The position numbers and the translations under genes were made by a program. The notes beneath the pieces are model-generated. The model was given only the letters and a program-made list of their open reading frames with translations. It made no database searches and was not told the DNA's origin. Source: Hemileia vastatrix (lineage: Eukaryota; Basidiomycota; Pucciniomycetes; Pucciniales; Zaghouaniaceae). Taken from it: DNA of 64,000 nucleotides. Where the stretch lies: the NCBI GenBank assembly GCA_030280995.1, contig JASXTE010000011.1, positions 553,501 through 617,500 of the forward strand, given 5' to 3'. Below are positions 7,007 through 53,477 of the stretch, piece after piece; position 1 is the stretch's first letter, and each line of letters begins with the position of its first letter.

Positions 7007-7017
7007 TGTCCTTGTGA

Positions 7018-11244: not shown

Positions 11245-11649
11245 TTAACTCACTGTGTTTTTCTTTCTATTTTTATCCGTTTTATAATTATAAGAGTAGT
11301 TATTGACTCAACCTCCATAGAGATCACATCACGTCTTATTTTTCTCACGTTTTTCTATGTTGTTCTTATTTTATGCTATTCATTCATCCCTGTCCTCATT
11401 GAGCGAGACACTAACTTAAATACTGGGTCTTGTCATTTCTTTTTGCCCGTCTTTTATCTCGCTCAATATTATTTCATTATTTTTATCTTTAGGTAACAGC
11501 GGCAAAGACCACTTAATAGGGCAGATCGTTTATTGACGTCTGTTTTATTTTTATATCTAAAAGGTAACAGCGGCAAAGACCACTTAATAGGGCAGATCGT
11601 TTATTGACGTCTGTTTTATTTTTATATCTAAAAGATTCGAGTTGTTTTA
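11230..11649 (+). repeat. Copia 3' LTR
   Basis: It is 420 bp, the same length as the 5' copy, with both 69-bp repeat units present. The reading frame ends 15 bases inside it (TAG at 11242). Confidence 0.93.
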
Positions 11650-16220: not shown

Positions 16221-16234
16221 ATAAAAAAGATAAA

Positions 16235-27713: not shown

Positions 27714-28089
27714 TCAATAAAAATATAAATAATAAAATAGTAAAAATAAAAAATAAAAAGTAAAAAAAATAAAATAAAAATAAAAACAAATAAAAAAAGA
27801 ATAAGAAGAAAAAATAAAACTAAAATAAATTAAAATCAAATTAAAATTAAAAATTAAAATTAAAATTAAAATAATTTTAAAATAAAATAATAACAAAAAT
27901 AAAAATATAAAAAATCTTTTATATATATCTGCTAATTATTATTGTTCTCCCTATTTAGTGAATTATTAATTTCTTTTTTTTGTTTAATGTTGGGAAGAAG
28001 AAGCCTCTGGCAGGTGGTCTCGAATATGGTTGTGTTTTTGTTTTTTATTAGGATTGGAGGAAGAACTGTGTTATTTGTGGTGTATGCGG
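27714..28089. other. Degenerate A-rich repeat tail, then short unique sequence
   Basis: Up to ~27905 the sequence is a broken-down AAAAT/AATTAAA repeat. The remainder to 28089 is T-rich with no gene. The frame on the minus strand in this stretch is repeat translation, not protein. Confidence 0.7.
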
Positions 28090-33774: not shown

Positions 33775-34831
33775 TGTGGTCTTCCAAAATTGTAAGAGGC
33801 CTTTGCTGGTCTTTTTGGTGCTGTTTTTGTATGTCTTAATTTACATTGGTTGAAGAATTAGGTGTTATTTTGGTTTTCATTCAGTGAATCTTAAGATTAT
33901 GTGTATGTGGGTACTACCATTGGATAGCCCCATATTTTCTCTATATTTTTTTCTTGATGATATTTTTCTTATTCCAAGTTTAAAGGGGTTATTTACCCAC
34001 TTTTCAATTCTAAAAGATAGCTTTTTAATTTTGTTTTTTGTGCTTTATGGGCTAAACTTAAGTCTTAGAGTTAAAGGCTTAGTACCATTAAGTAGAGCTA
34101 ATTTGGCTATATATTATATGTCACAATGTTTTCATAGCTTAATTTTATGTTTAAAGGGTTTTAGTAGTTGTGGTGGATTTTTCTAAGTATTTTGGGCTTT
34201 ATTAGATGTTTTTGGTGGTTTTCTGGCTTCTGGGAGGTCCTCGCACTTCAGTTATAGAAGGGTGGGGAGCCTTTATAGAGGGTTTTTATTTAATTTGGTT
34301 GTCAAAAGCACCAAATTAGTTTGCTGTGCTTGGATTTTTAGATGGTGGTCTGTGTGTACATACTGAATAAGACAGTTTGAGGAAACCTTAATTATCATAA
34401 AACCATCTGGTAATTATATCATTGTTTCTCACTCAGGTTTCACTGTTTTTTGCCACAATTGGCTGTGTTTGTTGAAAGTTCAGTTCTTCATTTAACTCAA
34501 CTTTGGCAACTGGTTTCTCTTGTGTAGCTTTTCAACCTGCATCATGTATTGTTGCTGTTTTTTGTGCAACAAGTGCACAGTGTTTTGTTTTTCTGGTGTG
34601 GATCTTTCTGCATTTCAGGTTTCTTTGGTCTGTTGTCAATCTAGGCAAATTTCTTGACTTTTTAAGCAGTCAAGAAGTGTGTTGGAAGGGGTATTGTAAC
34701 AGTTTCTAATTTGCAGTAGCAAATAAATCTCACCTTGTATTTCTCAAGGGGAAAGGGTTTTTCCTCTCCAGTTATACTCCAATTCCCTTGGTCAAGGCCC
34801 ACAACTAGTATTATAGGATTGTCTAAATTTC
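33775..34831 (+). repeat. 5' LTR of gypsy element A (family 1)
   Basis: It starts TGTGGTCTTCCAAAATTG and runs to the PBS at 34832. It shares all landmarks with the other two family 1 LTRs and extends past them through CAAATAAATCTCACC, CTCAAGGGGAAAGGG and CAATTCCCTTGGTCAAGGCC. The exact 3' terminal base is uncertain by several nucleotides. Confidence 0.8.
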
Positions 34832-34848
34832 TGGCGCCCAACGTGGGG
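34832..34848 (+). other. Primer-binding site, gypsy element A
   Basis: TGGCGCCCAACGTGGGG follows the LTR. TGG complements the tRNA CCA end; the implied tRNA 3' end is ..GTTGGGC, discriminator G, CCA. It is the best-preserved PBS of this type in the window. Confidence 0.85.
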
Positions 34849-34898
34849 TGAGGATCTGTTAGCTTTTTGGACTTTCTGTTACTTTTGGACTCTCTTCT

Positions 34899-36148
34899 GT
34901 GGTTGGATATTGGTTTTCTGGAATATATTGGGCCAAGGCCTCTGGACCCTCTTTCTCTAATGGTGGTAGTGACACTGTTGGTGCTGCTGACAATAGTAAT
35001 CCTCCTTTTTCTGTTAGGCCTTTTATCAGGATCAAGTCCTGGAAGGCGCCTATGTTTATGGGGGAGGATGTGAAGTTTTTTATGGAGCTGTTTGAGGCTT
35101 CTGGGAATGTGTATGGTGCTTCTCACCTGTAAATGATAAAGCAAGTCATTTTCTACATTGCTTAAAGGGCTCTTGTGAAGGAGGTTGCTGCAATGGAGAG
35201 TTTTTAGGAGGAAAGATTGGAAAAATTTGTCCCTGCAGAAGACAGACAGGTGGGGAGCCAGGTACTCAATGGTGGATCTCAATATTATTGCAACTGAATG
35301 AAAATTATATGGAGGGTTGGACAGCCTCCATACTTATACAAAGTTTCTGGCTTAGTTGGGGGCCAGTGGTGGATTATTTGGTGGATGTGCAGGAGTTGGA
35401 GAGTATTTACTCTGAAAGGGATATTTTCTGGTCTTCTCTGGCCAGGAATGTCAGAATTGATGTGCTGAAGGAGTTGGAAAGGAAGGATAAGATGAAGATT
35501 TTTCATTATGGGAATCAAAAGTTTCCTGCTTTCTCTGTGGTGAAGGAGTTTGTGGAGGGTCATCTGAAACTGTTGGCAGTTGATTTTTGCCAAGAAGCTA
35601 GCACCAAGTATGTTAGAAAGGTCTGTGAACCTTTTGCTGAAGATGTGTAGGATTCCAGGAAGAAGGAATAAGGAAAGTGTGAGAAAGGGAAAGACTCCTG
35701 AGAAGCCTAAAGAGTTTGATCCATTAGTGGAGAAGTTGGATGATCTGACAAAACAGCTACATATTTTTTTCAGGAGGCTCAGAAGGCCAATAATGCTCCT
35801 TCTCAGCCCAGAGATTTTGAAAGGAGGGTTTGAAGGAGTGACCCTTGGGTCTGCTCTTAATTCAGCAGGAAGGGCCACAAGTCTAATGATTGATGGGCAC
35901 TGAATCAGCATGTGTCTGAAGGGAAGGTGGAATTTGATGGAAACGTTTTTAAGTTCGCAGATGGCTCTTTTGTGAAGTCTAATGATGTTCATGCTCTAGT
36001 GGACTTGTTGAGGAGGATGCATAATGTCTACTCAAGGAGGCCAAGGTTTGAAGAGCTGCATAATAAGGCTTCTTCTTCTGATAAAGTTGGAGATGATTGC
36101 AAGGGAAAGAGAAAGGAGGCTAATAAAGTCTCATTTACATCTTCCTTT
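34899..36148 (+). pseudogene. Gypsy A gag, first part (interrupted by the 17-kb transposon)
   Basis: Collinear with gag at 57786-59100. Here KAPMFMGEDVKFFMELFEA and GASHL match PKFNGEEVKWFISSYEAAS and GASHV; RNVRIDVLKELERKDKM matches RDIRMDVLKDLSRKDLM; GHLKLLAVDFCQEAS matches AHLKLMPLDMYQES; VFKFADGSFVKS and GKRKEANKVSFTSSF match VYKFPDKLFIKP and GKEKEVSKATFSTSF. It ends abruptly after TSSF at the TTT target site. Several stops and frameshifts are present. The zinc knuckle is not recognisable in this copy. Confidence 0.85.
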
Positions 36149-36187
36149 CACCAGGTCAAAAGTTAGATGACTTGCAGTCAAGTGGTT
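36149..36187 (+). repeat. Left terminal inverted repeat
   Basis: It starts CACCAGGTCAAAAGTT and continues ACTTGCAGTCAAGTGGTT after five variable bases. It matches the right end inverted at 36 of 39 positions by my count. A smaller inverted repeat, ACTTG..CAAGT, lies inside it. Confidence 0.9.
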
Positions 36188-37203
36188 TTTCAGGTATCTT
36201 AAAGTAACATCAGAAGTAACCTTTGAAGTAACTTCAGTGCTTAAATAACTTACAAGCCAGACCAAAACTCTCAGTGCCTCTGTACCAAAAAGAATATTAG
36301 TGAAAGTATATTGGACTGCTTATTGTTAAAACTTTCTATCTTATTTGATCTTGAGTGACTTCTGGAAATTGTGCCTCAGTGCTCTATTAGCTTTTTTTCT
36401 TGGTAAGAAGTCCTCCATTTTAGCTATGCTTACACCATTTATTAAAGGCCGATTAAATAACTTTTCATAATTTTCTTTCTGTAGGTTGGCATCATAGAAT
36501 TTACCAGGACAAAATTCAATGGAGGCACATAGAAAAGTCCCATACCCTGTTATTTTTAAGCATAGGTAATTATGATTCAGTCATGAAAATTTATCCTACA
36601 GGGACTATTATAATCTTCTTAATATTACTGTATTTCAAAGATGAATAATGGCCAACAATGTCAATTTTTTAGAATGATTTAGTGACTTTTTGACGGTAGA
36701 AGAGGTATTATATAAATTTGAAAATAGACTTATACTTATAAAGTTTTTAAAAACAAATATATACAATAAAAAGAACATACTCAGATTATACTCAAACCTG
36801 TTATTTATAAAATTGCATCATAGTTTCAGGGATATAGTTCACCATGTTCAAAAAAAAACTTATATGATTTGTTCAAGTGAGGTTTCACCTATATCAATAA
36901 ACAAAAGGAGTTGTAAAAAAATATTACACTGCAGTTAGAGTTATAAAAAGGTGAAAAAATAAAATATTTTCACTAATCATCAATAGTCAATCAAACCCCT
37001 TCTAATACTCATTCTAATTTTAGTTTGGTTTTTAAATATTTTTTAGCTTATAGGAAACTTTATAAACTTAGGGAAAGTAAATTAAGAGTATGTAAAAGGA
37101 ATTACATGTATCCTCCAAGCTATGATGAAAAATAAGGTTAATATTTAGAAAGTTTTTTTACCAAATATAGTATAGCTTCAATAAGTTTGAACAAGTAATG
37201 CAT
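36188..37203. other. Left sub-terminal region
   Basis: AT-rich and non-coding. Near the end of the element, GTAAC words recur (AAAGTAACATCAGAAGTAAC, then TGAAGTAACTTC) at 36201-36235. Sub-terminal repeats are where CACTA transposases bind in plants, so they are candidates; three copies is a thin basis. Confidence 0.45.
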
Positions 37204-39382
37204 TCAATTTTTTTTTAACAATTTAAGTTGTTCTGCATTCAAAGTAGCTTGACTTTTGCAACAGTAAAATTCTATAACAGTTGCTAAATCTTCCAAATTG
37301 ACTTTAGTCTCAGTATCAACAAGGGACTGCTCTACCACAGAAAAATTATTGTAGTATGTTTCATCTAAAAAGGCTTTTGGAAGATCCCCAGGAAAAGATT
37401 CTTCACCAATATCATCCATAGGGAAACTTCTGGGACCTGCAACAGGTTGACCACCTTCCGTTCCTGGGTGTTGAGGGACCTTCAATTTTCGATCAAACTT
37501 TTTTTTGATAGCTGCCTTGGCTGTTTGAGATTTAGAATTTGCAAGTGATTTGAACATTGACCCCCTGTCAAGTCCATTTAAACATCAAACCAAACCTGCA
37601 CTTCTCCAAGGAATTGGAAGTTTTAATCTACTCCCATCTTGGCCTTCCTCAGTATCAGAGTGAATACAGATATCTTTGAATAATCCAGCCATATCAGGGA
37701 CCAAAAAAGATGAAGACATGTTTATTTGTCCATCACACAAATATAAAAATTTTATATTTAGTCTCAAAAAAATTTGAAAAGCTATAAAATGAACATGCTT
37801 ACATCTCTTCTTCTTTTAGACATTTGAACCTTCATTTTTTCAACTTCACCTTTTCAATCTTTTGAGTTTCAGATGATTTATCTTTTGACATATCAGCAAA
37901 TTTTTTAGACTGCCCAGAGATCCACCTCTCTAGGATGCTAAAAACTGCTTCATCTGTAACAGACTCATCTGAAACTGAAAAGTTTATCAAACCCTTCCCA
38001 TGATAGCAGGCCTTCCATCCAAGAACAATGTCATTAATTATGATAGAGTTCCACTCTCCATCCATACTAGATCCCCAAAGATAGAGAAAACAGCTTATAC
38101 CAGTTTGGGCCAATTGTGCTTCAGCTTGACGTTTCCACTGTGTATTAATCATCTGGCCAGGAGGTAAAGCATAGTCAGTAGTTGGGACAAATTTTGGATT
38201 TTTGAAGGTTGAAACCAGTTTTTGGGTTTTGGCTTTAATGACTAACTGTCGCTGAGCTGGGGTTAATTTTGTACGTGGCTTATCCTGAATTGCTTTAATC
38301 ATCCTCTCCCTCTCAGTTTGGGAAGTGCGCCATTGATTGACTATCTCATTGGAAGGAGGATCAGGAATTTTATGAGTAGCTGGGTCAATTCCTAGGAGGA
38401 GTCTAGCAAAAGAAATAATGGAGCGACCCAATGGAGTGGAGGCAGAAGGAATAGGTGATTTAGAAGCCAAATTGGCAGTTTTCTTTTTAGTAGCATTTTC
38501 AGTTTTTCTCTTCTTGGAGGTGTGTTCATGATGCTTGTGAAATTTGATATATGACTTAGGATCCAAGCCAGCTGTACCTGAAATGGGCCACATAGAGATT
38601 AGAAATTATATACAAAAATAATGAATCTTTCAAACATACCACACTCTGCAGAATCATCATCATTAGCAAAAAATTCTGAAAATTCTCTATCATCAGGAGG
38701 TTGTGCTGTTTCTGAAAAAGATAAAATGTGATTATCTGTCCTTGTTCCATATGAAAAAACCAATCATTTAAAAATACTAACCTGTTACCAAAAAAAAAAG
38801 ATTTAATAAGTTATAAGTTTATATTATTTGCAATAAAAAAATCAAACATTAATTTTATTTACCATTTGGATTTTCACCAGTTTCCCCACCACTGGGACCA
38901 GGTGGATTGGATGGTACATTGGGAGGATTTGGTGGGGGTGGAGGTGGTGGAGGTGGAGGAGGTGGAGGTGGTAGACCTGGTGTTGGTGGTGGTGGGCCTT
39001 GTGGACCTGGTGGTGGTAAAAGTGATTGATGATATGGGGATGGAGGAGGAGGAGGAGGAGGAGGAGGAGGAGGTTGAGGGGTAAATGAGAATTGTGGTAG
39101 TTGTATAGGTGGTGGTGGATATGGGGAAGCAGTATGTGATGGGCCAGGGGAGTCTTGGGTAAAAGGGATAGAATCAGATCTAGTACTAGGTGAACCAATA
39201 TACGGATCAAAATAGTAGCGTAATTGATAATCATGTTCAGAAGGATTTGGGTGTTGAAAAAGGCTTCTTTGATGACTGTGTTGGTGCCACAGGAGTTCTC
39301 TAATTACAGATTCAGATGATTGAGAGTGTGGTGACTCAGGGTCTTCCTGAGGATCAGTCATAACAACTTTTTTTCTTGTCAA
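37204..39382 (-). pseudogene. Gene Y: multi-exon unknown protein with poly-Pro N-terminus and SDTEE/WRS C-terminus
   Basis: Unrecognised. Exon 1 (39382 or 39361 to 38863) is disordered, with runs of 8-14 prolines. GT-AG introns at 38712-38862 and 38578-38639 join in frame (..ENPN/ETAQPPDD.. and ..SAEC/GTAGLDPK). The third exon encodes a Lys-rich linker and a globular part with IISFARLLLG, IPDPPSNEI and LERWISGQSKKF. A stop at ~37832 and a frame change precede the last part, HSDTEEGQDG..IPWRS..AKAAIKKKFD..FPMDDIGEESFPGD..LATVIEFYCCKSQ (37204-37767), which has a stop near 37570. A diverged relative lies at 48.4-49.5 kb and a relic at 418. It could be a regulatory or DNA-binding accessory of the transposon. 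Confidence 0.6.
38930..39105 (-). repeat. Triplet-rich tract encoding poly-proline
   Basis: The plus strand has GGT/GGA/GGG repeats (GGTGGAGGTGGAGGAGG-type), giving runs of Pro on the minus strand, 8-14 residues at a time. It is part of gene Y exon 1. Slippage could vary its length between copies. Confidence 0.85.
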
Positions 39383-39969
39383 TATTTGAAAATTAGAAAT
39401 ATAAAAATAAAATTGACATACCTTCCCTAATAGATTCCATCTTAAATGTATTGGCTTGTTATAAAATTAAATTAAATTTGAACCAAAGACTGTAAATGGT
39501 GGATGTTTTAAATAAGATTTAAGGAAGGTGTAAAAATTCCAACATTTTATTTAGAGCAAAAATATTTTTCATGCATTATGCATTGTAAGTTTGGCTTCAC
39601 CAAAATGATCCAAAAAATTTATGAACAGAAATGTGAGAAAAGAGAAAGACAAAATTACTGTTATCATTTGTGAGCTATCAAATCCAATAATCAACATACA
39701 AAAAAATAAGTTTCATATACATTAAAACACTTCATAATTACATTTCATATTATTAAATTTTGGAAAACTTCATTGCAACACCATCATATGTAAAAATAAT
39801 CAAAAGAAAATTCATTAAATATCAACAAGTGAATAACAAAGTGATAAATGTTAAAAAAAATTTAAAAAAAGTGTATTTTATGCAGCCAACTGAATCTCAT
39901 ATTTTTGAACTATGGTTTCAACAACACAATTAACATAAATGAATTTCAAGAAAAAATCAATAAATCTAA
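39383..39969. other. Intergenic between genes X and Y
   Basis: 590 bp, AT-rich. No ORF or repeat recognised. It must hold the promoter of gene Y and the 3' end of gene X. Confidence 0.5.
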
Positions 39970-42553
39970 TTACAAAGTAAGTTGTGGTTGTCTAGATCTT
40001 TTAGCAGATGTTCTTATCCATGGTATTTCCCCTTCACTTGTATCAATAGTCAATTTCTCTATAAAGTCATGTAAAATAGAGTTGGAGACCTGCTCCAGAG
40101 AAAGAGAAACAGGAATGTAAAATTGTTTTTGACATAGTGAGTTAACTATGGTATCAACAATGAGAGCATGGGTCCTGGGCCATGCAACATCATGCTGATG
40201 TGAACTACTTCCAATCAACAGGTTAGTTAGCTCAATCAACTCCCCACAAGTGGATTGAGTTTTCCTTCTAGCATCATTTGAGCTCAGGAAGAGTCCCCTA
40301 ACACCAGCAGCAAAAAAGTAAGCAAGGTGGTAAAAAATTAACTTTGACCTTGAGGTAGCAAGAATAGGTCCTGCTCCTGCCCTAGCTGAGCTCTCTTGCA
40401 CTGATGAGCCTGATGCTACTCTATCTTGCAGGAAATCATCACAATTTGAATATCCTTTTAAGAGTGCAAGACATTGAACCATGTGAAGAATCTTGTTGTA
40501 TAGATTAGCCAGATGCTTGACAGAAATAGTGAGAGATGATTCATCAGAAGCTGAGCCGATTTTTGCAACATCAACTTTTCGCTTGTACATCATCTTCTCA
40601 ATGTCCTGGATAATATTAAAAACACTTTCTTCATTTGCATTTTAATTGGAAACATCTCTTATGGATGAGTCAAGTGTATTTCCTGATAGATGGATTGATT
40701 CCATGATTAAGCTGGCCCAATCACGCTTACTTGATTTGGATGGAAGTGCAAGAGAAGAAAGGTTGATGAATAAACTAGTAACATTAGCAGACCTCTGCTT
40801 CAAAATCTTCATTTCAAAAACATCCTTTCTGTTCCAAAGTTCAAAGATAGATGGTTGGAGGAACGAAGGGGCTATGGAACTTGTAAGCCAGATAAAAAAA
40901 AATAAAAGTGAAAAATAAGAGAAAATATTTACCAAGTGTAGTGACCTCACTGAGCCACTCTCCAACAGTAGAAGATGATGACTTGAATTTAAGGTTAATG
41001 TTTCTTAAATCCATCGGCGACTGAGCTTTAAGAGCAGAATGTTGATTGAGGATTTCATAGGAGCGGAATTCCAAGTTTCTCCAGGACTCATCGGGTAATC
41101 TTGTTTCATATATTTTACAAATTTCAGTGATTTTGTCTCTGAATTCTGGAAAGATAAACTGGTAGGATCTCTCAAAGGGGGGAATGTAGTTTTCACTTTC
41201 TTTGCTAGAAGTTGAGGCTGATTCAGGGAGAGGGGGAGCTGGAGAGGGTCCTAACTGAGTCTGTGAAGCTGAGGTGGGTGTGAGGGCGGGGGCAGGCTGT
41301 GAAGGTGGGATAGAAGTAGGACCAGTGGCTAAAGGTGGAGAAGCAGCTGGGACAGAAGTAGTGACAGAAGTAGTGACAGAGGGGAGAGGTCTAGTGGTAA
41401 CAGCTGGGGTATTGGATTTAGAGAGTAGAACGGTGGTATCTTTGGCACTTGGAGACTGGGTTGATTTTGGTGGTGAAGGTCTGGAAGCAACATTTATAGG
41501 AGCTGAGGTTGATGAAGTTGGGGCTGGTAAAGTGGGATGAGGGGATGCAGTTGTAAGGGTGGAAACTACAGGTTGAGAAAGAGCAGGAGCAGCAGAGATA
41601 GGGATGAGAGGAGCAGTTGGAGAAGCAGTATTAGGGATGGCTTTATCAGACACAATTTTGAATGTTGAAGGAGCTGAAGATTGGGTGGCAGGGTTGGTGG
41701 TTGTCATGGTGAGTGATTTTTTTGTAAGTTTCTTCTTCTTTGAAGCAGGGTTGAAGGTGTCATCCTCAGAATCAGTAGGTATATTATAGTTAGGGGTTGC
41801 TGCAGCTGATTTTCTTTTTGGACGCCTAGAGGGTTGATCATCAGTGGTGAGGTCAATGATAACCATTTTTTCCTCTGGAGGAAGCTGAGACCCAGAAGAA
41901 ACAGCTGAAAGAAAAAATTACTACTAAATACTTATAATGAAAACAGTGAAAAAAACTGACCATTTTTCAGCTCTTAGACAAGATCCAAAAGATCCTGCAC
42001 CTTCTTCATAGCTGAATCCGCAAGTAAAGTTTCATTTAAGAGTGATTCAACACCAGTTTGAAATTTGGTGTACTGCAAGATAAACTCCTCAGTAGAAATT
42101 TTATACACCTCATTTTTAAATACACAGCTTGAAGAAGATGGTTTTCTTTCTTGGGCTTCTTGAGCAAGAGGTATGTCATCCATGAAAAAACAATCAGCCT
42201 CTGTAGAAAGAACAATGTTACTAGCTCTGACCTGATGTGTCAGATTCACTGTTCACTGCATCACCGGACTCCACAGTGTTGGAGGGTTGTTGAGGGGCAA
42301 CAGTTAAAGTTTCTACATCAATGAAAACAATGTATAAAATGAAATTTTAATAAAAGTTTTAACTAATATATATAAAAAATTACTCAACAGATGTCACATT
42401 CACCTGAGGATCCACATCTTGAGCTGACAACAGGGAATGGTATGAATCATTAGAACTGGATTTTTGTTGAGGCAGCTCTACATCTGGACAGGAGGGTGAG
42501 CTGGGAGGTGCCTGACTGGGGGTTGAGGCTGAGGATTGAGCTTGTTGAGACAT
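39970..42553 (-). pseudogene. Gene X: multi-exon unknown protein
   Basis: No domain recognised. The likely start is MSQQAQSSAS at 42553, with a donor at 42403. An exon around 41974-42249 has an acidic helical part (FILQYTKFQTGVESLL, ADSAMKKVQDLLDLV). The main exon (about 41900-40933) holds VIIDLTTDDQPSRRPKRKS, a long Pro/Ser/Thr/Ala-rich tail, then a folded part (PPFERSYQFIFPEFRDKI, LPDESWRNLEFRSYEILNQ). An intron at 40872-40932 joins TTL/APSFLQ in frame. The last exon (KDVFEMKILKQRSANV, MMYKRKVDVAKIG, SKLIFYHLAYFFAAGVRG, IPWIRTSAKRSRQP) has one in-frame TAA near 40643. VIIDLTTDD resembles a SUMO-interacting motif followed by a basic nuclear signal; that is inference. Exon boundaries at the 5' end are uncertain. 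Confidence 0.55.
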
Positions 42554-42834
42554 CTGTGTTCTGCGTTGATAGTTTTTGAAAAGAGGTGGTTAAGAGTAGA
42601 GAAGTTTGTGGATTTGACAGGTAGACTTCTCAGCTTATATTAAGAAATTCTATGCAAAATATGGTTGCATAGGTTTAGGCATGACTAAGGAAGGTTGCAT
42701 TATATTTGTGCAACTAATGTAAAAAAGTAAAGCATAACTCATACTATAATGCGCCAAATACAAATAAATTAAAAATATTGCATCTTTTTGCAATGTTATG
42801 AGACTATATACATAACTTTTAGCACCATGTATAG
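42554..42834. promoter_or_regulatory. Upstream region of gene X, next to palindrome field
   Basis: There is no ORF. It separates the proposed gene X start from the first palindrome half-site at 42835. A role in leftward transcription is inferred from position only; I see no convincing TATA/Inr pattern. Confidence 0.3.
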
Positions 42835-44261
42835 CATGTCGCCTCATGTATGCAATATCTCTACATGTATAATTTTATATTTTACTTACAAATTGCATAT
42901 ATGAGGCAACATGTCGCCTCATATATGCAAAATTGATCAAAATGTATTAAATTGAATACATGAGGCAACATGTCGCCTGATGTATGCAAAATAGTAAGCA
43001 GGGTTATTAATAGCTGCTAAAAAAACTTGAACTTTTCATACATGAGGAGACATCTCGCCTCATATATGCATGCTTGTAATTGATCAATATTATATATTTA
43101 TTACCTTGTATTCCACATGCCTCATATATGCATGCTTGTAATTGATAAATATTATATATTTATTACCTTGTATTCCACATGCATACATGAGGCAACATGT
43201 CGCCTCATGTATGCATGTGTGTTAGCCCATTTTAGTATACAAAATAACTATGTAATATATACAATTAAACATGTATGCAATATCTCTACCTCGCCTCATG
43301 TATGCAATATCTCTACATGTATAATTTTATATTTTACTTACAAGTTGCATATATGAGGCGACATGTCGCCTCATGTATGCAAAATTGATCAAAATGTATT
43401 AAATTGAATACATGAGGCAACATGTCGCTTCATGTATGCAAAATAGTAAGCAGGGTTATTAATAGACGCTACAAAAACATGTACTTTGCATACATGAGGC
43501 AACATGTTTCATCATGTATTCAATTTAATACATTTTGATCAATTTTGCATATATGAGGTGACATGTCGCCTCATGTATGCAACTTGTAAGTTAGATTTTA
43601 AATTACAAATTTAGAGATATTGCATACATGAGGCGACATGTCGCCTCATGTATGCAACTTGTAATTTAAATTTTTAATTATATATGTATGCAGTTAAGTT
43701 AAGGCATCGCCAGGCTACTAATACAGTTCAAAGGCAAGGATAGTGTTTTATTGCATACATAAGGCGACATGTCGCCTCATGTATGAAATACTCACATATT
43801 AATTGTATATATTAAATAGTCATTTTATATATTTACATGGGCTAACACACATGCATACATGAGGCAACATGTCACCTCATGTATGCATGTGGAATACAAG
43901 GTAATAAATATATAATATTGTTCAATTACAAGCATGCATATATGAGGCGACATGTCGCCTCATATATGCATGCAGGGCCTCTGCTAGGGCCAAAAAATAT
44001 AGGTAAAAATGACCAAATTAATACTATTACACATGCATGCATACATGAGGCGACATGTCGCCTCATGTATGCATGTTTCAACAAACAAATGTATAAGTGC
44101 TGTTATGTTTCTTCTATATAGGAGAGCCCATAATGCATACATGAGGCAACATGTCACCTCATGTATGCAATTTCAAACTTAGCTTGCTTCTTAGTTTTAA
44201 AGTAGCCCTGCAATATTTGACTTACATGCATACATGAGGCGACATGTCCCCTCATGTATGC
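42835..44261. repeat. Field of ~15 palindromes of 34 bp (plus half-sites)
   Basis: The unit is GCATACATGAGGCGACA followed by its own reverse complement. Full-length copies start at 42895, 42954, 43036, 43181, 43347, 43406, 43488, 43547, 43622, 43753, 43853, 43936, 44039, 44135 and 44228; half-copies lie at 42835, ~43116 and 43291. Copies at 43622 and 44039 are perfect; the one at 43936 extends to a perfect 42-bp palindrome (43932-43973). Spacing is irregular, 50-130 bp. Part of the field is a ~170-bp block present twice, ~454 bp apart (42840 and 43294). The field sits between divergent genes X and SNF2 inside the transposon. Candidates: protein-binding sites, a cruciform-forming bidirectional control region, or a swarm of very small palindromic elements. 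Confidence 0.95.
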
Positions 44262-45701
44262 AATATTGGTGCCCCAAAAAAAGAAAAGACACAACAGCAT
44301 GTATACATATTATTTCTATGTATTAAATGTATAATTTTTTTTTAAATTTTTAATTCTCATTTTGATGATGGTGTATGAAAAAAAAAACTATGTTTCTCAA
44401 ATGCTGATTGAAAAGAGAAATGCATGAGGGAAAATGTGCTACCCTGTATGTATGCTTCTTATTTCATCTCCACTAGCCTTTTGCTTGATTAATATTTAGT
44501 TTCAATTATTGTGATTACATAATGCATTGTCCTTGCCATCTGCGTGTTTTTACTGTATATATATATAGTTATTATTTCTTGAATATGTGATTGGTTATAT
44601 CAACAGAAGTTGCTTTTTGAAAAATCTCAAAAGATTTATTAATAAGAAAATTTTTAAGTAAAACATGATAGTCCATTTTAATAAAGAAATTTTTCATAAT
44701 ATTTAACTTAAAAGAAGTGAGTGACATTTTGAAATTCTTGATTAGGGCTTAGCACCTGCCTTCAAGGGGCTGGGTGGTGCACCCCTGGACACTAGTGTAC
44801 CCCCCCTCCAGTTGTGCAAGTGTTGTGTTAATATTATAAGTTTAATTTTTATTTTTCTCATATGTATGTACTGGATGATAAATATATTGAATTAAAATGT
44901 AGTTTCAATTTTTGGAATGTTTTTGTGAAAAATAAAGGGGAGGATTATATATTTTATATTTTATATAAATAGTTCATTATATTAATGAAAATAAATGATC
45001 ATGTGAACTTTCCAGAACCTTTTTGACTTTATTAAGTGTAACCCGTGGTTTGTATTTACAAGATCCCACTAGTTAAATTATAAGCTCTGTACAATATCAG
45101 ATTTTCCATACTCATTGGCTGTGATCTACAGATAATTTAACCAAGTGAAGTGAACAGTGTAAGAACAGAAGTTTTGTAAATGAAGTCATATTTCTAATAT
45201 TCATGATCCTGCCTTCTCATTGCCATTCTGTGTAATGGAAACATAAAAATTAATGGATGTAGTTCTGTGTACATAGAAACTTTTATTCAGTCCAAAAATT
45301 GTTTTCTCCACTTGAAAAGGTGGAACATTCAATATATTCTTGTTTTTTTAGTTTCCAAATATATGCTTTTATTTGGGAGATAAACTAAATTCATAAATCC
45401 TACAAGTGCTGTTTAGATTATTGATGAATTAAAAAATATTTAATTTTAAAAATCTCTTATGACTTATGTGTACCTCCTGAGATTTAAATCTATGTAAAAA
45501 GTTTAACACAGTTAATATCACTTGCTGATCTTTTTTGTCATATTTTATCTGGACCTACAGAGTTTGGCACAACTTTAATCAACATGGATAAATTTAGTTT
45601 TTATTTAGATCATGTGACTGCTTGGCAATGAAATTTTTGTATCTTGCGTAAATACCCACTTCTTCCTGAATTATCTTCTTTTCTCTCAAAGTTTATTTCT
45701 A
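44262..45701. other. Region upstream of the SNF2 frame
   Basis: 1.4 kb, AT-rich, no frame recognised. One GC-rich spot at 44768-44815 contains GGTGGTGCACCCC and ACACTAGTGT. An undetected 5' exon of the SNF2 gene may lie here, because the first recognised exon lacks an ATG. Confidence 0.4.
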
Positions 45702-47948
45702 TTTAAGATAGAATCATCTTCTTCTACCTCTCCTGTCTGCATTGGCTTGCTTCAACCTCAAATATCTGACTCTTTTAGCTTCCCAGGTTTGGTGGAGGAA
45801 CCTGTATCACTTTATCTCTCTCATAAAAAACATACTATAAGGGTCAGGGCACAATCACCTCATATAAACATTGGTAAACTGTGCCCTACTCATTCTCAAA
45901 TCCTATATGACCTACTTGGCCAACCATGTTATCAAACTTTAGTTGCTCCTGTTGGGGGTTGGCTTCCTGGGCAGGATTCACCCCCTTTATGGGTTGAAGC
46001 TACATTGCTACCCCAAATGGGTGCTGACTGTCCCTTAAAAATTAATATTTTGATTTTCTGTATTTCTACTTTCTTAGTCACCATCCCCCATGCACTTGCA
46101 TCCATCTCCAACATAATTATTCTTCCACCTGGCTATAACCCATCAATTCACTTGTACTGTCCCATACAAGATTTATTCAATCAAAGCAATCAACTACCAT
46201 CTATCTCCACTGATTCCTTACTTCCCTCTGCACCTTATCATCCTATACACGAAATCAATGTTCAAAATTTAAATACAACACTACTACCCCACCAAAAGAA
46301 TGCGCTTTCTTTTATTCTCTCTCAAGAATCCCGCACCCAAACTTACCTTTGGCGACAGACAGGGGAGAGTAGCTGGGAAGATTATTTGAGACAAGAACTC
46401 CTCCAAAATCCTCCTTCCAAATCAATTTTGCTAGCAGATGAAATGGGTCTAGGAAAGACAGTTACCACTATTGCATTAATTTTCAACACCTTAGACAAAG
46501 CTTCTCAATTTTCCCACCTTGTTGAAGCACAGTCAAGCACTCCAAGAATAAAGGCAACCTTAATAATTGTCCCTAGAAGCTTTTTTCAGCAATGGAAAGA
46601 TGAAATCATCCGGCATGTATCAGCTGATATCAATCTCAAAATAACTATCTACCATGGCAGAGGACGACACGAAACTTTCAACAGCTGGCCTGATTCACAT
46701 GTAGTTCTGACTAGCTACAATCTGGTGATAATTGACTTGGAGGATATCAACAAAAGCAAGGGTTTATATCATGTTTGCTGGTTTCGTGTTATTCTAGATG
46801 AAGCTCAGTAAGTTGAAAATTTTCCTACTCTTAGTTTTTCACTTCTAAGTCCAATATTTTTTGGAAGCCACATTTGTGAATCAAGAAACAAGGCCTCAAC
46901 AGCAGTCCTTGGCTTGAATACCTCTCGATGGCTGTGCATTACTGGAACACCAATTCAAAATAGATTTCAAGATTTGTATGCCATCTTCAGGTTCCTTTGA
47001 CTTGCACCATTCACTACTCCTGCTGGGTGGAATCAGCATGTGGCACAGCATGCAAAAGAAGGAAATTACACAAAGGTAAAAAATGTTATCCAGGATATCT
47101 TGGGTGATGTAATGATCAGAAAATCCCGACAATCGGTTGGCCTAGACACAATTTATGATCAGCTCACTCCCTCTATACATGAAAATACAATATTTATCAA
47201 GCTTACTGAGGACCTTGCTTGTCTTTACTCTGAAAGGCATTCAAAAGCTTTTCAATCTCTTGGAATTTGCAGTAGTGACAATCTCCTTTCAAAAGATCAA
47301 TCAACTTTAGCAAAATTGACCAGTTTGCGCAGATTTTGTACTCATCCCAAAATGCCATATGACTCAGAGATCAAATCTGTTGAGCATATGAATTGGAGGG
47401 ATAGTCCAAAATTGGTTCACCTTATTAAAACATTTCACAACTTAATTTCACAGGATTAAAATGTGAAGTGCATTATTTTTATCAGAGTGGACTACTACCC
47501 TGAAGTTGTAGGTTTTTTGGAAATTAATACTGGATCCCTAAATCCATTTCATTGCTGTAAAAACTGATATCTTTTCAAAAAAAATAGGATTTCATTTGCA
47601 CTTGATGATTATGAAATACGTCAAATTCTATTTGATGGCACAACCAATTAAAGTACACACAAGAATGTTCTCAAGTCATTTTCACTTATCAAGACTGGTG
47701 TACTCCTGATGAATCTCAAGGCAGGTGGAGAAGGATTGAATCTCACTATGGCATCTCATGTGTTCTTAATGGTAAGTATTTATAATTTTATCAAGAACCT
47801 TTATTTATAAGATTTTTTTCTTTAGGAGCCAACTTGGAACCCAGCTTCTGAGAAGCAGGCAATTGGTCGTGTTAATCGCATTGGCCAAGAAAAAGAAGTT
47901 TATGTATACAAGTATATTGTTGAATCTACTATTGAGGAAAATATTTAA
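45702..47948 (+). pseudogene. SNF2-family (RAD5/HLTF-like) ATPase carried by the transposon
   Basis: SNF2 ATPases are DNA-dependent translocases that remodel chromatin or help repair. Motifs in order: LLPHQKNALSFIL (Q-like), ADEMGLGKT (I, ~46436), LIIVPRSFFQQWKDEI (Ia), VILDEA plus H after splicing (II), ITGTPIQNRFQDLYA (III), then RRFCTHP, KCIIF, LLMNLKAGGEGLNLT (V) and QAIGRVNRIGQEKEVYVYKY (VI). Introns at 46808-46867 and 47772-47825 have GT-AG borders and restore the frame. An in-frame TGA near 46999 (FRFL*LAPF), and stops and shifts at 47459-47650, disable it. There is no ATG at the 5' end; an earlier exon is possible. I see no RING finger between motifs III and IV. Confidence 0.88.
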
Positions 47949-48440
47949 TGTGTCAGCACCATTTCTTTCACATTCATTTAAAAATTCTCTCTTATTAATT
48001 ATTGTTGATCTAGGTAAAAACCATTAAGTTAGATGTTGCTAAGTATGTTTCATTAACTCTACCATCTCATCACCATCAAACTAAAATTTATTTTTTTTAT
48101 TAGTCTTGCCCTTCCTGAATGAAACATTAAATTTTAAACTTTCTTTTTTTTATTATTTTCCATAAGAAAATTTTGAAGTCTTCAGTGTACTTGACCACTA
48201 TCAATTAAGTAGCTTAGCCATGTATTTTTTTTTATAAATTTTCTACTGTGTCACAAATACAAAGGAAATTTTTATATGTTATATTCCTTTGTTAATTTTA
48301 CACAAAGGGGCATATTTTTAAAATAATATATATGGAGGTGATTATACCCTTACATTTTAATAATCTAGAAAGATTTCACATTTATAGATTATAGAAAAAA
48401 TACCTTTAAAAATTCTTTCAACATGTAAGGCTTTCATTCT
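47949..48440. other. Intergenic between SNF2 and the Y-like gene
   Basis: AT-rich, no gene. The short minus-strand frame at 48357-48593 overlaps the next gene and is probably a shadow. Confidence 0.5.
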
Positions 48441-49520
48441 TTTTTTAAAAGTGATTTGTTCACCTCTTGTATTAGCTTCTACTTTAATTCCTACCACAGG
48501 CTTCAAGAGCACACGTGCTTTTAACAAAATTCTTTCCCAAATTGGTGTTCCAAGTTCTAAGGCTTCTTCCACCATTTCAGTTATTGACTTCATGAAACTT
48601 GTCTTGGGAAAATGTCAAAAGCTGGACAATTTCCCACCTCCACCAACCACTGCTGAATTATCATCTCTTTCAAATGAACTAGTTACTACTAATTTATCTC
48701 TACCACCTGAAAATATGTACACCCTTGAAGAAATTTCTTTATCACCATCTGGACGCCAAAAAACTATTCCCCTGGTTTTTTACCATACTTGCCATCAAGA
48801 TGCCATTAATGTTGGGGTTCCCCGCTTATGCCTCTCATTGAACATGGAGCACAGAGATTGGAATCAAAGAATCATTCAACACTTTACAAAGCACTATTGC
48901 TATGCCCATAAGTACCAGGCATTTGATCAGTATCACATAGATTATTCTGAAGAAATAATAAAGTTTGTACCTCTAATTCTGCAACAATGGATTCAAGGAA
49001 AAATTTCAACCAGTAAATCTTTAGATGTTTCTAAGCTAAATAGAAGAAGAATGATGGATACTAGGCGGAAAGTGAGCAAGAATTTATTTTTTTGTAAATT
49101 TCTATTAATAATTGTCTTCTCAGTTGCATGCTTCTCGTAGGAAAACAGCTGTAGCTTGTCTTGATTCCAAACATCTCTTTTTGTTTGATAATCCTTGCTT
49201 CCACTCTGACACTGAAGAAGATCAAGAAGGAAATCTTTGGAAAAGGAAACCATCTTGGCGCTCTGAGGAAATGTCAAATTTTTACTCACAAGTTGATCAA
49301 ATTACTCTTAACTTGATAAGAGGATCTAAAAATCATGGACATATTTCTAAAAATATTGTATCTCTTAGAAAAGACTCAAGTATTGCTTCACATACACTTG
49401 TGTGTCCTAGTAATCTTCCCACCAATTGTTACAACATTGATAATCTCAGCCTTTCTCAGTTTTTACTTATATGCCATAATCCTTCTTTTACAATCCCTTC
49501 TCTCTCCCATCTGCTTTAGT
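48441..49520 (+). pseudogene. Y-like gene: diverged relative of gene Y in the same transposon
   Basis: Exon 1 (about 48451-49076) contains STISVIDFMKLVLGKCQKLD, NFPPPPTTAEL, FYHTCHQDAINVGVPRLCLS, then FVPLILQQWIQGKISTS and a Lys/Arg-rich KLNRRRMMDTRRK. A GTGAGC donor at ~49072 and an acceptor near 49122 lead to LHASRRKTAV..CFHSDTEEDQEGNLWKRK and PSWRSEEM. Gene Y has IISFARLLLG, IPDPPSNEI, ILERWISGQSKKF, HSDTEEGQDG and PIPWRSAGL in the same order. No known domain. It ends with a stop at 49517. The beginning is unclear and it may join an upstream exon. The recurrent S-D-T-E-E .. W-R-S signature seems to be the conserved core. Confidence 0.6.
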
Positions 49521-49797
49521 GTTTCACCTGTAAATTTTGTTTAGAATTTTCCTCCTGGTGAAGTTGTATTGAATAGCCATTTTGAATAGTAAAATTATTT
49601 TAGAATTTGAATACATTATTTTCTCCTTTTTATGCCATCTTGTCCAAATACCGCCACTTAAAAATTGTTTTCTTAATTTTTTAACATACTCTCTGCTGAA
49701 CATGCCTACTAGATATGTTGTTTGCACTTTCTCTGAGCTTGGTTGAAATAAAAAATCTTTCACCAATAGTGAAAGTGAGATAGTTCAGGGGCTTTCA
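49521..49797. other. Intergenic before the transposase
   Basis: About 280 bp, AT-rich; presumably contains the promoter of the transposase. No clear signal. Confidence 0.4.
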
Positions 49798-52700
49798 ATG
49801 TCTACAACTGCATATTACAAGCATCAAGATAAAATTCAGCTTTTTAGGAAACAAAGTCAATTGATCAATCAATCCACAGCTCCTGAGCACCAACCTCTGG
49901 CCAAAAGTAGCTCTCACCAAGAATCTTCTTCTTCTTTTTTTCCTGTGGCAAGCTCTTCAAATGAAGTATTCTTACCCACTACTGAGGAGGTAAGCACCTA
50001 AAGTTTACTTAAATTTATAATTATTTTAATTTCTTGCTTTTTTTTAACATATTTATCTCATCAGTTTGGCCAAAAACACTCATTAAGTCTTGATGCTGAA
50101 GATGCTGAGTCAATCACCTCAATTGTCAAAAAATTGAAAAGTTTTAAAAATTCTTCTTCTTCTTTTTTAAATTTATTACGAATTGAAACCTCCTCCTTTG
50201 CTCCTCCTGCTCTTGCACATCTATCACCATTGATTTTCTTTATACTTATTGATCTGGCACATGGCCTTCTGGTTCAAAACTTATCACATAGGCAAATTAA
50301 AATACGGATTCAAGCTGAATTTTTCAAGATCAATTTAATATCTAAAACTTATAAAGATGCCAAAAAACTCCTGCATGAGTCTAAAAAGCTTCCTCATAGC
50401 ATTTACACTGTTCTCAACTGACTCAACCTACATGCGCCGCTTACAACTATTCTATGTTGTCCAAATCTCTTTCATCAACCTTTCAAAACAGCTAACAAAT
50501 ACAACTTTGAACATGCCCATTGTAGTCAAATATGCTCAATGCCATACCTCGTAAAAAGAATGTTGTGTTGAAATGCAATCATCCATTGTTTCAGCAAAAA
50601 GATAATCAAACATTGGATTTTTTTCCAGTCCAATTGTTTACAACTCAATCTCTTATATCTTGACTAGCCCGCCTTCTTCTTCTTCCAGGGTTTGAGGACA
50701 ATCTGGATTACTCATTAAGGAGGCCACATAATACACAAGGAAAAATGTGCGATGTTTGGGATGTTTCAGTCTGGAAGGAATTTAAAGATATAAAAGGAGA
50801 TTATTTTACAAATAAAAGTGGTAATCATGTTTTCAGCCTGTATATTGATTGGTTTAATCCTTTTGGGAATAAAATTGGTGGTCATAGTCAGGTGTCATTT
50901 GGATCTATTATTTATATTTGTCTAACTCTTCCACCACATTTACGATATAAAAAGCAACATGTTTTCTTGGCAAGAATCACACCTGGGCCACATGAACCTA
51001 GTTTGGACCAGTGTAATCATGTTATTTCACCTCTTTTAGAAGAACTTCAAAAGCTGTGGAAAGGATTCTTTTTTTCAAAGACATTTCGTTATCCTGAAGG
51101 AAGACCAATACATGCTGCAATATTTCCTTTAATTGGTGACCTACCAGCTATCCAGAAGCTCTCTGGTTTTTCCAGCTATAGCTCAAGTAATCCATGCTCA
51201 TTTTGCTTTATTTCTAAAGAAGATTTGAAATCTGGTAAACTTCCTGCTGAGTTCCTATCACGCACTGATTCGAACCACCGAACTCAAGCTATTAAATGGA
51301 AAAATTCTTCCAGTGCCCAAGCAAGAAGGAAGATCTTTGATAACAAAGGTGTTCAATATTCATCTCTTCTTGAACTTCCATATTGGAAACCAGTCTCTTT
51401 TGTTGGAATAGAACTTATGCACTGCTTACTTCTTGGTATTGCCAAAGACTTCAGTAAAAATTAACTTCTTATTACAGCAGCTGGTGATTACATTCAAAAA
51501 GAAAAGAAAAAATCTTCAAAAAAAGGCTTTCAGGATGACCATTCATTCTCTTCAAAATCCAGTCACCATTCATTTTCCAGATCCTCCTCTAATCCATCTT
51601 TATTTAAGATATTAACAAAAAAAAGATTTCAAAACTACCATCATTCCCCTCAAATTTTACTTCTCATGATTCAAGTAAAAGTAGAAAGACAAAAAGTACA
51701 GTTTGTGTAGTGATACCGCCATTGAGAAAAAACCTCAAAAGAAAACTATCTTATGATTAAATTGGTCAGGAGAAGGCACGAAATGCTCTAAAAATGGCTG
51801 GGCCATCAAGAAGTACTAATCCACAGGGTGTTGAATTCAGCTCAGAGAAAGAAGAATCAAGCTCTGATGTAGATAGTTCAAGTAAGTTATACTGAATTAC
51901 TTTTAATTAAACATTTTCCTAATAAATATTTTCTTTAGAGTCCACATTTCAGGAATTTTCTGCCTGTTTTAGACCTAAAATCAATTTGGGATCAGCTGCA
52001 GCACCAAATGATTTAACTTCTGATTTAAATCTAAGGCCTAGCAAATTGATGATTGTTCAAAATTTTATTTGGCATACACTCATTCCCTCATGGTTAACCC
52101 GTGTTACACACCATGTAGGGGAGACTGGAACAAATCTCAAGGCAGCTGAATGGCTTTTATTAAACAAAATTTATTATGTGGTTGCTTTGTTCCCAGTTTG
52201 GAATACAGAAAATTCTGAATCTCGAGAGAAGAAGTTGATAAAGTGTCTTTCCCTGTTGGTATCTATTATCAACCTTTTAACTTCCGTTGAATTAAATGAA
52301 GAACAAATTGTATCTCTTCAGGATCATCTAAAAGAGTATATGAAATGTCTTAAAGAATTTTGGCCACATATTGACATCAAACCTAATGTCCACTTAGCCC
52401 AACATTCTCCTGAAGTTCTGCGACGATTTGGGCCAGCACCATCATCAGCAGCTTGGGCTCATGAGCGTATAAATGTAATGTTGGGATCTATCTCACACAA
52501 TAATAAAAAAAGTATGTGCTCCTATAATCTTTTTGTTCCTCATAATTATTTACTTTAATATTTTTTATTTTAGATGAAATGGACAAAACATTTATGAAAA
52601 TGTTTATCTTGACTGGGCAGCTTTAATCTCTTCTTGAGAGGAATGACAATCGATTTGAAAACAAAATGAAAGATGTTTTTGATATAGAAAAAAAAAACTT

Positions 52701-53228
52701 CGAAATCAACTGTTAAACTACTCCATGAAGAATATGTTTTATGGCTGAATTATTTAAACAAGATTGATGGTAAAAAGTGTTTTTCAAATATTTTGGAAAA
52801 AGATAAATTGACTGGTGCTTTAGAATTTCTTTCATCTAAAATTACTGATCTCCAATACTTTAACCTTGGTGGTAAATACTTCTCACTATACTCAAAACAT
52901 CAAGGGAATGGGAATATTGAGATCAAATTATCAATAGGAAACAAGGTTGGAGTGGTGTTAAGAATGTGGGAGTCAAAGAAGTTCCCAGATCAAACCTTTA
53001 TTCTAGTTGGATTGTATGATGCTTTTGAAAAAAAAAATAGAAAATCCTTTCTCCAAAGCAGGATTTAAAACATTTTGGTGCTACAATAGATTGTCTAAAA
53101 ATGTTATTATTACTCATAAAGATATTATTGGACATGCTTCAAGAACTCTCAATCCTAGTGGCTTTGGTGGTGTTTTATCTGATACTGTCTGTATAATGTC
53201 ATTAAGTAGTATAGCTGGCGCCTATTAA
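49798..53228 (+). pseudogene. TNP2-family (CACTA) transposase
   Basis: Start MSTTAYYKHQDKIQLF. The intron at 49990-50064 joins LPTTEE to FGQKHSLSL. Landmarks of fungal TNP2 proteins follow: WLARLLLLPGFED (last part of the N-terminal region), VSLYIDWFNPFGNK-type (here FSLYIDWFNPFGNKIGG), LPPHLRYKKQHVFLARITPG, FPLIGDLPAIQKLSGF, a Cys-x-x-Cys (NPCSFCF), LPYWKPV and ELMHCLLLGI. A second intron at 51882-51938 and a third at 52512-52573 flank the C-terminal part (LNLRPSKLMIVQNFIW, NVHLAQHSPEVLRRFGP, AWAHERINVMLGSI). The Asp residues of IDWFNP and LIGDL are where TNP2 enzymes keep catalytic acids. Stops and shifts near 50420, 50640, 51464 and 52623 mean the copy is inactive. Confidence 0.88.
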
Positions 53229-53438
53229 TCATCATTGTAATATCCATTATGAATTCGATATATGCCTTTTAGACACCAAAGTTTGATCTATTGCCTGTTG
53301 GAAATTATGCAAACAGCACTATATGAAGAATTCAAATTGGTCCTAATGATTCAGCTATGAGCTATGTGTCATGATGAAAAATTGTCCCACCAAAGTTCCA
53401 ACACAGGTTTGACTCAGGTTAGACCACAGGTACTAAAC
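53229..53438. other. Right sub-terminal region
   Basis: Non-coding, with CAGGTTTGACTCAGGTTAGACC at 53404 as two imperfect CAGGTT.GAC copies, similar to the CAGGTCAAA start of the terminal repeat. Candidate transposase sites. Confidence 0.4.
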
Positions 53439-53477
53439 AACCACTTGACTGCAAGTTGTCAAACTTTTGACCTGGTG
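53439..53477 (-). repeat. Right terminal inverted repeat
   Basis: The plus strand ends AACTTTTGACCTGGTG. Inverted, it matches 36149-36187 with three mismatches, all in the five bases after CACCAGGTCAAAAGTT. Confidence 0.9.

What the first reader, a model, noticed from the sequence alone, without database searches (positions are those of the whole stretch)
42835..44261. Field of ~15 palindromes of 34 bp at the centre of the transposon, between divergent gene sets
GCATACATGAGGCGACA plus its reverse complement occurs about fifteen times in 1.4 kb, with some half-sites, irregular spacing and unrelated AT-rich spacers. Two copies are perfect and one extends to 42 bp. Plant CACTA elements place transposase sites at their ends; a central array is different. 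Possible roles: operator array controlling both gene sets, cruciform landing site for the SNF2 or X/Y proteins, small-RNA precursor, or a proliferating mini-palindrome.
Basis: partly seen in the sequence, partly recalled or inferred. Interest (0 to 1): 0.92.

Follow-up and report, generated by a model that had tools for sequence, protein, structure and literature searches.

The report
Palindrome array inside a fungal transposon
A large jumping gene, apparently in a rust fungus, carries fifteen near-identical mirror-image DNA sites between its two outward-facing gene sets, most likely docking sites with which the element controls its own genes, away from the ends where plant relatives keep theirs.

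Summary
The array is real. Fifteen palindromes with sharp 36-bp edges (TGCATACATGAGGCGACA|TGTCGCCTCATGTATGCA) and three half or truncated sites lie at 42837-44261; the rest of the window has none. I found the element's ends: 39-bp terminal inverted repeats (36/39 identical) at 36149 and 53477, starting CAC, flanked by TTT on both sides. It is a 17.3-kb CACTA/EnSpm element with SNF2 and tnp2 genes on one side. It is probably not plant: transposase, GC content and CpG loss point to a rust fungus.

The spacers are mostly not unrelated: 12 of 15 resemble another spacer, in either orientation. The unit is absent from the element's ends. Arms do not covary, which speaks against a selected hairpin.

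Best reading: a protein-binding control array (TNPA/VANC-like) between divergent genes, separated from the transposition ends. Against it: in copied modules palindromes diverge about as much as spacers (more in 3 of 5 comparisons, less in 2), no DNA-binding domain was recognised, and no second copy could be examined. New variant of a known kind.

The parts
36149..36187 (+). left terminal inverted repeat (CACCAGGTCAAAAGTTAGATGACTTGCAGTCAAGTGGTT), preceded by TSD TTT at 36146-36148
   Evidence: 36/39 identical to the inverted right end
53439..53477 (-). right terminal inverted repeat, followed by TSD TTT at 53478-53480
42837..44261 (.). palindrome array: 15 palindromes plus 3 half or truncated sites
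42837..42853 (-). half-site (right arm only)
42895..42928 (.). palindrome 1
   Evidence: 3 differences from consensus
42954..42987 (.). palindrome 2
   Evidence: 3 differences
43036..43069 (.). palindrome 3
   Evidence: 4 differences
43119..43131 (-). truncated half-site in a 62-bp tandem duplication (43057-43182)
43181..43214 (.). palindrome 4
   Evidence: 1 difference
43289..43305 (-). half-site (right arm only)
43347..43380 (.). palindrome 5
   Evidence: 1 difference
43406..43439 (.). palindrome 6
   Evidence: 3 differences
43488..43521 (.). palindrome 7, right arm decayed
   Evidence: 5 differences
43547..43580 (.). palindrome 8
   Evidence: 2 differences
43622..43655 (.). palindrome 9, equals consensus, perfect over 38 bp
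43753..43786 (.). palindrome 10
   Evidence: 2 differences
43853..43886 (.). palindrome 11
   Evidence: 2 differences, both in CpG
43936..43969 (.). palindrome 12, perfectly self-complementary over 42 bp
   Evidence: 2 differences from consensus, one in each arm
44039..44072 (.). palindrome 13, equals consensus, perfect over 40 bp
44135..44168 (.). palindrome 14
   Evidence: 2 differences, both in CpG
44228..44261 (.). palindrome 15
   Evidence: 1 difference
43291..43636 (.). inverted duplication inside the array (arms 43291-43445 and 43482-43636, 90% complementary) able to form a long RNA hairpin
   Evidence: I2; -216.7 kcal/mol against a mean of -72.9 in 100 shuffles
39970..42553 (-). left gene Y (predicted exons 42404-42553, 42001-42231, 40951-41884, 40654-40871, about 39970-40605); predicted start codon 284 bp from the array; no known domain
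   Evidence: no Pfam family at E<=10; exon borders are predictions of my own script
37204..39440 (-). left gene X (approximate): proline-rich N-terminus, then a part related to a frame in the right gene set
   Evidence: P0011, 98% identical over 58% of the query, from a public read set
45618..48050 (+). SNF2-family ATPase gene (RAD5 is the best solved-structure match)
   Evidence: SNF2-rel_dom E=5.6e-46, Helicase_C E=9.1e-07; both ends approximate
48388..49519 (+). coding stretch related to left gene X
   Evidence: BLASTP of two chosen pairs: E=1e-08 over 31 aa and E=0.002 over 83 aa, each for a single comparison
50664..52558 (+). tnp2-type transposase gene (Transposase_21 at about 50.7-51.2 kb; further exons predicted downstream)
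   Evidence: E=3.2e-16; homologues; extent predicted

Best explanation
The array is the shared control region of a 17.3-kb fungal CACTA/EnSpm element. Each 36-bp palindrome is a binding site for a dimer of a sequence-specific protein, most likely one that the element itself encodes (candidates: left genes Y and X and the X-like protein on the right). Lying upstream of both outward-facing gene sets, the sites let the protein switch both sets together and/or keep them open against CpG-methylation silencing, as TNPA does for maize Spm and VANC for Arabidopsis VANDAL. Unlike TNPA sites they are not at the ends, so regulation and end recognition appear to be separated. The array grew by copying modules of palindrome plus spacer; because the site is symmetric, modules were copied in either orientation. 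Shown: sites, position, element ends, related spacers, CpG pattern. Inferred: protein binding, the protein's identity, the regulatory effect, the copying mechanism.
For: Position between divergent genes, starting 284 bp from the predicted left start codon. Sharp 36-bp edges: T/A flanking 15 of 15, mixed composition beyond. The three spacers at 43970-44227 resemble no other, yet the four palindromes beside them differ from the consensus by 0-2 bases. 8 of 17 arm positions are invariant in 32 arms (30 palindrome arms and 2 half-sites; the truncated site was left out). Palindromes keep 17 of 30 CpG slots, while spacers have CpG o/e 0.16 (2 CpG in 866 bp, half-sites excluded) and the element 0.19. 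Arms do not covary (25 mismatches against a permuted mean of 27.3, P=0.23), as expected if half-sites are read as sequence rather than as a hairpin. No copy at the termini (best 8 mismatches). Precedent: soybean Tgmt* has 2+12 palindromes of subterminal repeats, proposed to be bound by an element-encoded protein; VANDAL motif arrays accumulated by tandem repeat formation in non-coding regions.
Against: In copied modules palindromes are not better kept than spacers: 13/102 against 6/130, 3/34 against 8/103, 3/33 against 1/49 (palindromes worse), 7/68 against 8/72 and 7/68 against 9/72 (slightly better); the rows share segments. So no current constraint is visible there. 10 of 13 lost CpGs are CA or TG, so the sites have not been protected from deamination throughout. 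No DNA-binding domain was recognised in the left genes, and single-sequence models of one frame each of Y and X were unusable (pLDDT 37 and 40). No helical phasing of sites (P=0.52). The array ends 1.36 kb from the SNF2 open frame. No other copy of the element was seen.
Confidence: 0.45

Rival explanations
1. By-product of palindrome-driven recombination: a chance palindrome recombined with its copies, multiplied with its flanks in both orientations, and persists without function in non-coding DNA.
For: Related spacers in both orientations; copied palindromes are no better conserved than spacers; three truncated or half sites.
Against: Spacers 43970-44227 resemble no other, yet palindromes 12-15 beside them have 0-2 differences; drift after duplication should have blurred both alike.
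Confidence: 0.22
2. Small-RNA source: a transcript through the array folds into long hairpins that are diced, feeding host silencing of the element or acting as a decoy.
For: 43291-43636 folds at -216.7 kcal/mol against -72.9 in 100 shuffles, z=-26.7; further inverted arms of 150-159 bp.
Against: Only the secondary duplications give long arms; the 36-bp unit alone is short. No arm covariation. No Rfam match at gathering scores. No transcript or small-RNA data were available.
Confidence: 0.12
3. Structural site: palindromes extrude as cruciforms or exclude nucleosomes, opening the promoter or recruiting the SNF2 protein by shape.
For: Of 5 units folded (of 15), the two consensus copies form 16-bp DNA hairpins at -18.7 kcal/mol and two others reach -13.8 and -13.0.
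Against: The fifth unit folded (43487-43522) has lost stability, -4.6 kcal/mol, and arm changes are not compensated. Shape alone would not require invariant bases.
Confidence: 0.08
4. Transposition site: the transposase or an accessory protein uses the central array as an enhancer that loops to the ends.
For: In plant CACTA elements such arrays are cis-determinants of transposition.
Against: The unit is absent from both ends.
Confidence: 0.08
5. A tiny mobile palindrome inserted repeatedly.
For: Sharp edges and unrelated spacers on the right side.
Against: I see no consistent target duplication in the flanks printed; no copy in the other 62.6 kb of the window at 3 mismatches or fewer.
Confidence: 0.05

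Closest known systems
Subterminal palindromic repeats of CACTA elements bound by TNPA-type proteins (maize Spm/En TNPA; soybean Tgmt*, PMC2613891, passages seen)
   Same: Many copies of an element-specific motif, arranged as palindromes, in non-coding DNA of a CACTA element with a tnp2 gene
   Different: Here 1.4 kb of them lie between divergent gene sets and none near the ends; the palindrome is 36 bp and loop-free
VANC target motif arrays of Arabidopsis VANDAL elements (PMC5735166 and PMC10398659, passages seen)
   Same: Motifs multiplied by duplication in non-coding DNA of the element; a plausible link to anti-silencing
   Different: VANC motifs are 8-9 bp, and the word palindrome does not occur in the main text of PMC5735166; different transposon superfamily (recalled); no VANC relative was looked for or identified here
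Rust-fungus EnSpm elements (Kojima 2025, PMC12730594, passages seen)
   Same: CAC..GTG termini, 3-bp target duplications, Plavaka-like transposase
   Different: The three families described there encode a TET/JBP dioxygenase (related ones exist in other species); here none was found in the frames scanned, and an SNF2 gene is present. The passages seen mention neither SNF2 nor such an array

Membership tests
CACTA/EnSpm superfamily | termini 5'-CAC..GTG-3' | tested here: met
   CACCAGG...; CACCA rather than CACTA; rust EnSpm use CAC..GTG
CACTA/EnSpm superfamily | 3-bp target-site duplication | tested here: met
   TTT on both sides; a homopolymer, so weak taken alone
CACTA/EnSpm superfamily | tnp2-type transposase | tested here: met
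   Transposase_21, E=3.2e-16
[quoted passage not shown]
   reported for the group; not checked on these exons
CACTA/EnSpm superfamily | subterminal repeat arrays (plant members) | tested here: not met
   in the terminal 1.1-1.2 kb only 2-3-copy families, one of them 15 bp resembling the TIR start at 80-87% (36147, 36500, 36838); array unit absent
Plavaka | termini TGT..ACA or CATCA..TGATG | tested here: not met
   CACCA termini against the definition
TNPA-type binding array | multiple palindromic copies of one motif in non-coding DNA of the element | tested here: met
TNPA-type binding array | location near the element's termini | tested here: not met
   array 39-47% along the element
TNPA-type binding array | bound by an element-encoded protein | not testable with these tools
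   needs a binding assay
VANDAL/VANC anti-silencing arrays | motif array grown by duplication in non-coding DNA | tested here: met
VANDAL/VANC anti-silencing arrays | element encodes a VANC-family protein | not tested
   no Pfam match in Y or in the larger part of X; no VANC sequence or profile was compared
VANDAL/VANC anti-silencing arrays | loss of methylation at the array | not testable with these tools
   CpG retention is only indirect

The most novel reading that the evidence does not exclude
The palindromes are the target of a fungal, transposon-encoded anti-silencing system, an equivalent of VANC evolved separately, in which an element-encoded dimer binds the array and recruits the element's own SNF2 remodeller to keep a bidirectional promoter open, wholly separated from the transposition ends.
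Probability: 0.15. Interest if true: 0.82.

Novelty: new variant of a known kind. Interest (0 to 1): 0.5.

Why it matters
If the array is a regulatory target, this element has taken apart two jobs that plant CACTA elements do with one set of sites, end recognition and self-regulation, which would let them be studied separately. It also pairs a motif array with a transposon-borne SNF2 ATPase in what looks like a genome that silences transposons by CpG methylation, a possible further counter-silencing route beside TET/JBP capture in rusts and VANC in Arabidopsis. The shuffling of spacers in both orientations is a clear small example of how a symmetric site may let an array grow and invert.

Tried and rejected
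Selected hairpin: arm covariation tested and not seen. Helical phasing: none. Known RNA: no Rfam match at gathering scores in the element. Dispersed copies: none in the rest of the window at 3 mismatches or fewer and no exact match in viral contigs. Plant-type CACTA end: 4 matches with 2 mismatches, no more than chance. Relatives of the transposase with context: viral contigs twice and prokaryote genome contigs once; 7, 4 and 9 stretches matched a pattern, none encoded a relative. Protein searches: SNF2 3 hits of 2000 candidates, tnp2 7 of 651, X 1 of 3933. Structures of one frame each of X and Y: confidence too low, so no fold search was made. Plavaka membership: rejected on termini. TET/JBP gene: none among Pfam matches at E<=0.01 in the three + frames of 44600-54599 and the three - frames of 32800-42799; other frames were not scanned this way. 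Papers: eight searches; I recognised no paper on a central palindrome array in a CACTA element among the rows listed (some listings were capped, the library is open-access only, and one search returned nothing). I saw passages of six papers by 'find' (PMC12730594; PMC5735166; PMC12810828; PMC8063080; PMC10398659; PMC2613891) and one outline (PMC12730594). Statements on maize Spm rest and on recall.

Full report
WHAT IS THERE. The half-site GCATACATGAGGCGACA occurs 31 times with at most 3 mismatches, all at 42837-44261, against a mean of 0.00 in 100 dinucleotide-preserving shuffles. These make 15 palindromes with 0-5 differences from the 34-bp consensus and two right-arm half-sites (42837, 43289); a truncated arm lies at 43119. 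Read outward, the base just outside the arm is T in 30 of 30 arms, the next is A or T in 30 of 30, and beyond that composition is mixed. The unit is therefore 36 bp. Three copies are perfectly self-complementary, over 38, 42 and 40 bp. All 14 loop-free palindromes of the window with 15-bp arms and at most 2 mismatches are in the array. Seven half-site matches with 5 mismatches lie outside the array, about what I would expect by chance for so short a word (my estimate, not a tool result).

THE ELEMENT. A seed search for inverted repeats on either side gave one outstanding pair, with outer ends at 36149 and 53477: 36 of 40 bases, 36 of 39 as a gap-free alignment, starting CACCAGGTCAAAAGTT. Both ends are flanked by TTT, a 3-bp duplication. 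The element is 17,329 bp long with its midpoint near 44.8 kb; the array lies 39-47% along it. On the right, in + orientation, are an SNF2 ATPase (SNF2-rel_dom E=5.6e-46, Helicase_C E=9.1e-07) and a tnp2 transposase (E=1.1e-14 in the frame scan; 3.2e-16 for the single frame). The SNF2 part is closest to RAD5 among solved structures. On the left, in - orientation, my exon script suggests two genes, Y and X. No Pfam family was found in the - frames at E<=0.01, nor in Y and the larger part of X at E<=10. Two pairs of frames that I picked by eye show X related to a stretch on the right (48388-49519): E=1e-08 over 31 aa and 0.002 over 83 aa, each for a single comparison. A relative of X, 98% identical over 58% of the query, exists in a public read set (P0011).

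THE HOST. The transposase search gave 7 hits among 651 candidates; the only one with an organism name is from the myrtle rust Austropuccinia psidii (38% identity). Kojima 2025 (PMC12730594, passages) describes rust EnSpm elements with CAC..GTG termini, 3-bp duplications and similarity to Plavaka transposases, which matches. The window has 33.2% GC and CpG o/e 0.22, with a copia element that looks young (99% identical repeats) at 0.76; the A. psidii paper (PMC8063080, passages) reports 33.8% GC and CpG loss increasing with element age. I take the host to be a rust fungus; the species is not established.

HOW THE ARRAY GREW. Twelve of 15 spacers within the array are related to at least one other (z>6 against shuffles), in 13 pairings of which four have z of 6.2-7.1; spacer 43656-43752 rests on such weak ones only. 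I aligned 12 of the 13 pairings (leaving out the weak inverted one of spacers 42837-42894 and 43215-43346): 4 of 12 match from palindrome edge to palindrome edge in both spacers, and 3 more cover the whole of one spacer. The 25-bp spacer occurs three times without a change, twice forward and once inverted; a 48-bp spacer occurs twice forward (43/48); a 49-bp spacer occurs forward and inverted (48/49), with a further forward copy in a 62-bp tandem repeat. I infer exchange or template switching at palindromes, which a symmetric site allows in either orientation. The three spacers at 43970-44227 match no other, yet palindromes 12-15 beside them differ from the consensus by 2, 0, 2 and 1 bases.

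SELECTION OR NOT. For: near-identity across unrelated spacers; 8 of 17 arm positions invariant in 32 arms, the truncated site left out; CpG kept at 17 of 30 slots while spacers have 2 CpG in 866 bp, o/e 0.16. Against: in copied modules palindromes are not better kept than spacers. Palindrome and spacer differences are 13/102 and 6/130, 3/34 and 8/103, 3/33 and 1/49, 7/68 and 8/72, 7/68 and 9/72: palindromes worse in three, slightly better in two; the rows share segments and are not independent. Nine of the 13 differences in the first row fall in the pair 43036/43488. Ten of 13 lost CpGs became CA or TG; CpG bases differ at 14 of 60 against 17 of 450 at other positions. So the array has been exposed to methylation-type decay, and duplicated sites look relaxed while those beside unique spacers look kept. 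Recent spread of the latter would look the same; only other copies can decide.

MECHANISM. Arms within a palindrome are no more alike than arms drawn from different palindromes (25 mismatches against a permuted mean of 27.3, P=0.23), so pairing itself is not visibly maintained, although power is limited with 15 units. That favours half-sites read as sequence by a dimeric protein over a hairpin or cruciform. The array begins 284 bp from the predicted left start codon and ends 1.36 kb before the SNF2 open frame. In soybean Tgmt* the subterminal repeats form 2+12 palindromes, and an element-encoded binding protein is proposed to recognise them (PMC2613891, passages). Here the terminal 600 bp hold no match better than 8 mismatches; the terminal 1.1-1.2 kb hold only 2-3-copy families, one of them resembling the TIR start. 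In VANDAL elements, non-coding motif arrays grown by tandem repeat formation are bound by the anti-silencing VANC proteins (PMC5735166 and PMC10398659, passages). I therefore read the array as a self-regulation or anti-silencing target, at 0.45. The protein and the effect are not shown.

RIVALS AND LIMITS. The strongest rival is functionless growth by recombination (0.22). The hairpin-RNA rival is kept because 43291-43636 folds at -216.7 kcal/mol against -72.9 in shuffles. The decisive test, other copies, was blocked: the search of the window's own genome did not answer in eight tries. Scans of viral and prokaryote collections found no relative, which says little about eukaryote genomes.

Noticed in passing
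45618-48050: An SNF2-family ATPase gene lies inside a CACTA/EnSpm element's terminal repeats; motifs DEMGLGKT and RVNRIGQ are readable. I recognised no paper on such an element in the listings.
   Followed up: partly
37602-38577 (-) and 48388-49519 (+): Left gene X and a right-hand stretch are related (CIHSDTEEGQDG...PWRS against CFHSDTEEDQEG...SWRS), so each gene set seems to hold one copy of the same family.
   Followed up: partly
41866 (-), start of a frame in gene Y: MVIIDLTTDD resembles a SUMO-interacting motif (recalled, not tested), followed by a basic stretch.
   Followed up: no
6573-11640: Copia retrotransposon that looks young: 99% identical repeats around an open 1408-aa polyprotein frame, with a 71-bp tandem repeat in each; CpG o/e 0.76 against 0.22 for the window.
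   Followed up: partly
28467-28754 and 56713-56992: 19-bp tandem arrays in two LTR-like stretches in the same orientation, about 28 kb apart.
   Followed up: no
36147, 36500, 36838: The first bases of the left TIR recur twice further in at 80-87% identity over 15 bp, about 345 bp apart; may be chance.
   Followed up: no
15555-16228 and 26729-27911: Long (AATAAA)n arrays of 0.7 and 1.2 kb.
   Followed up: no
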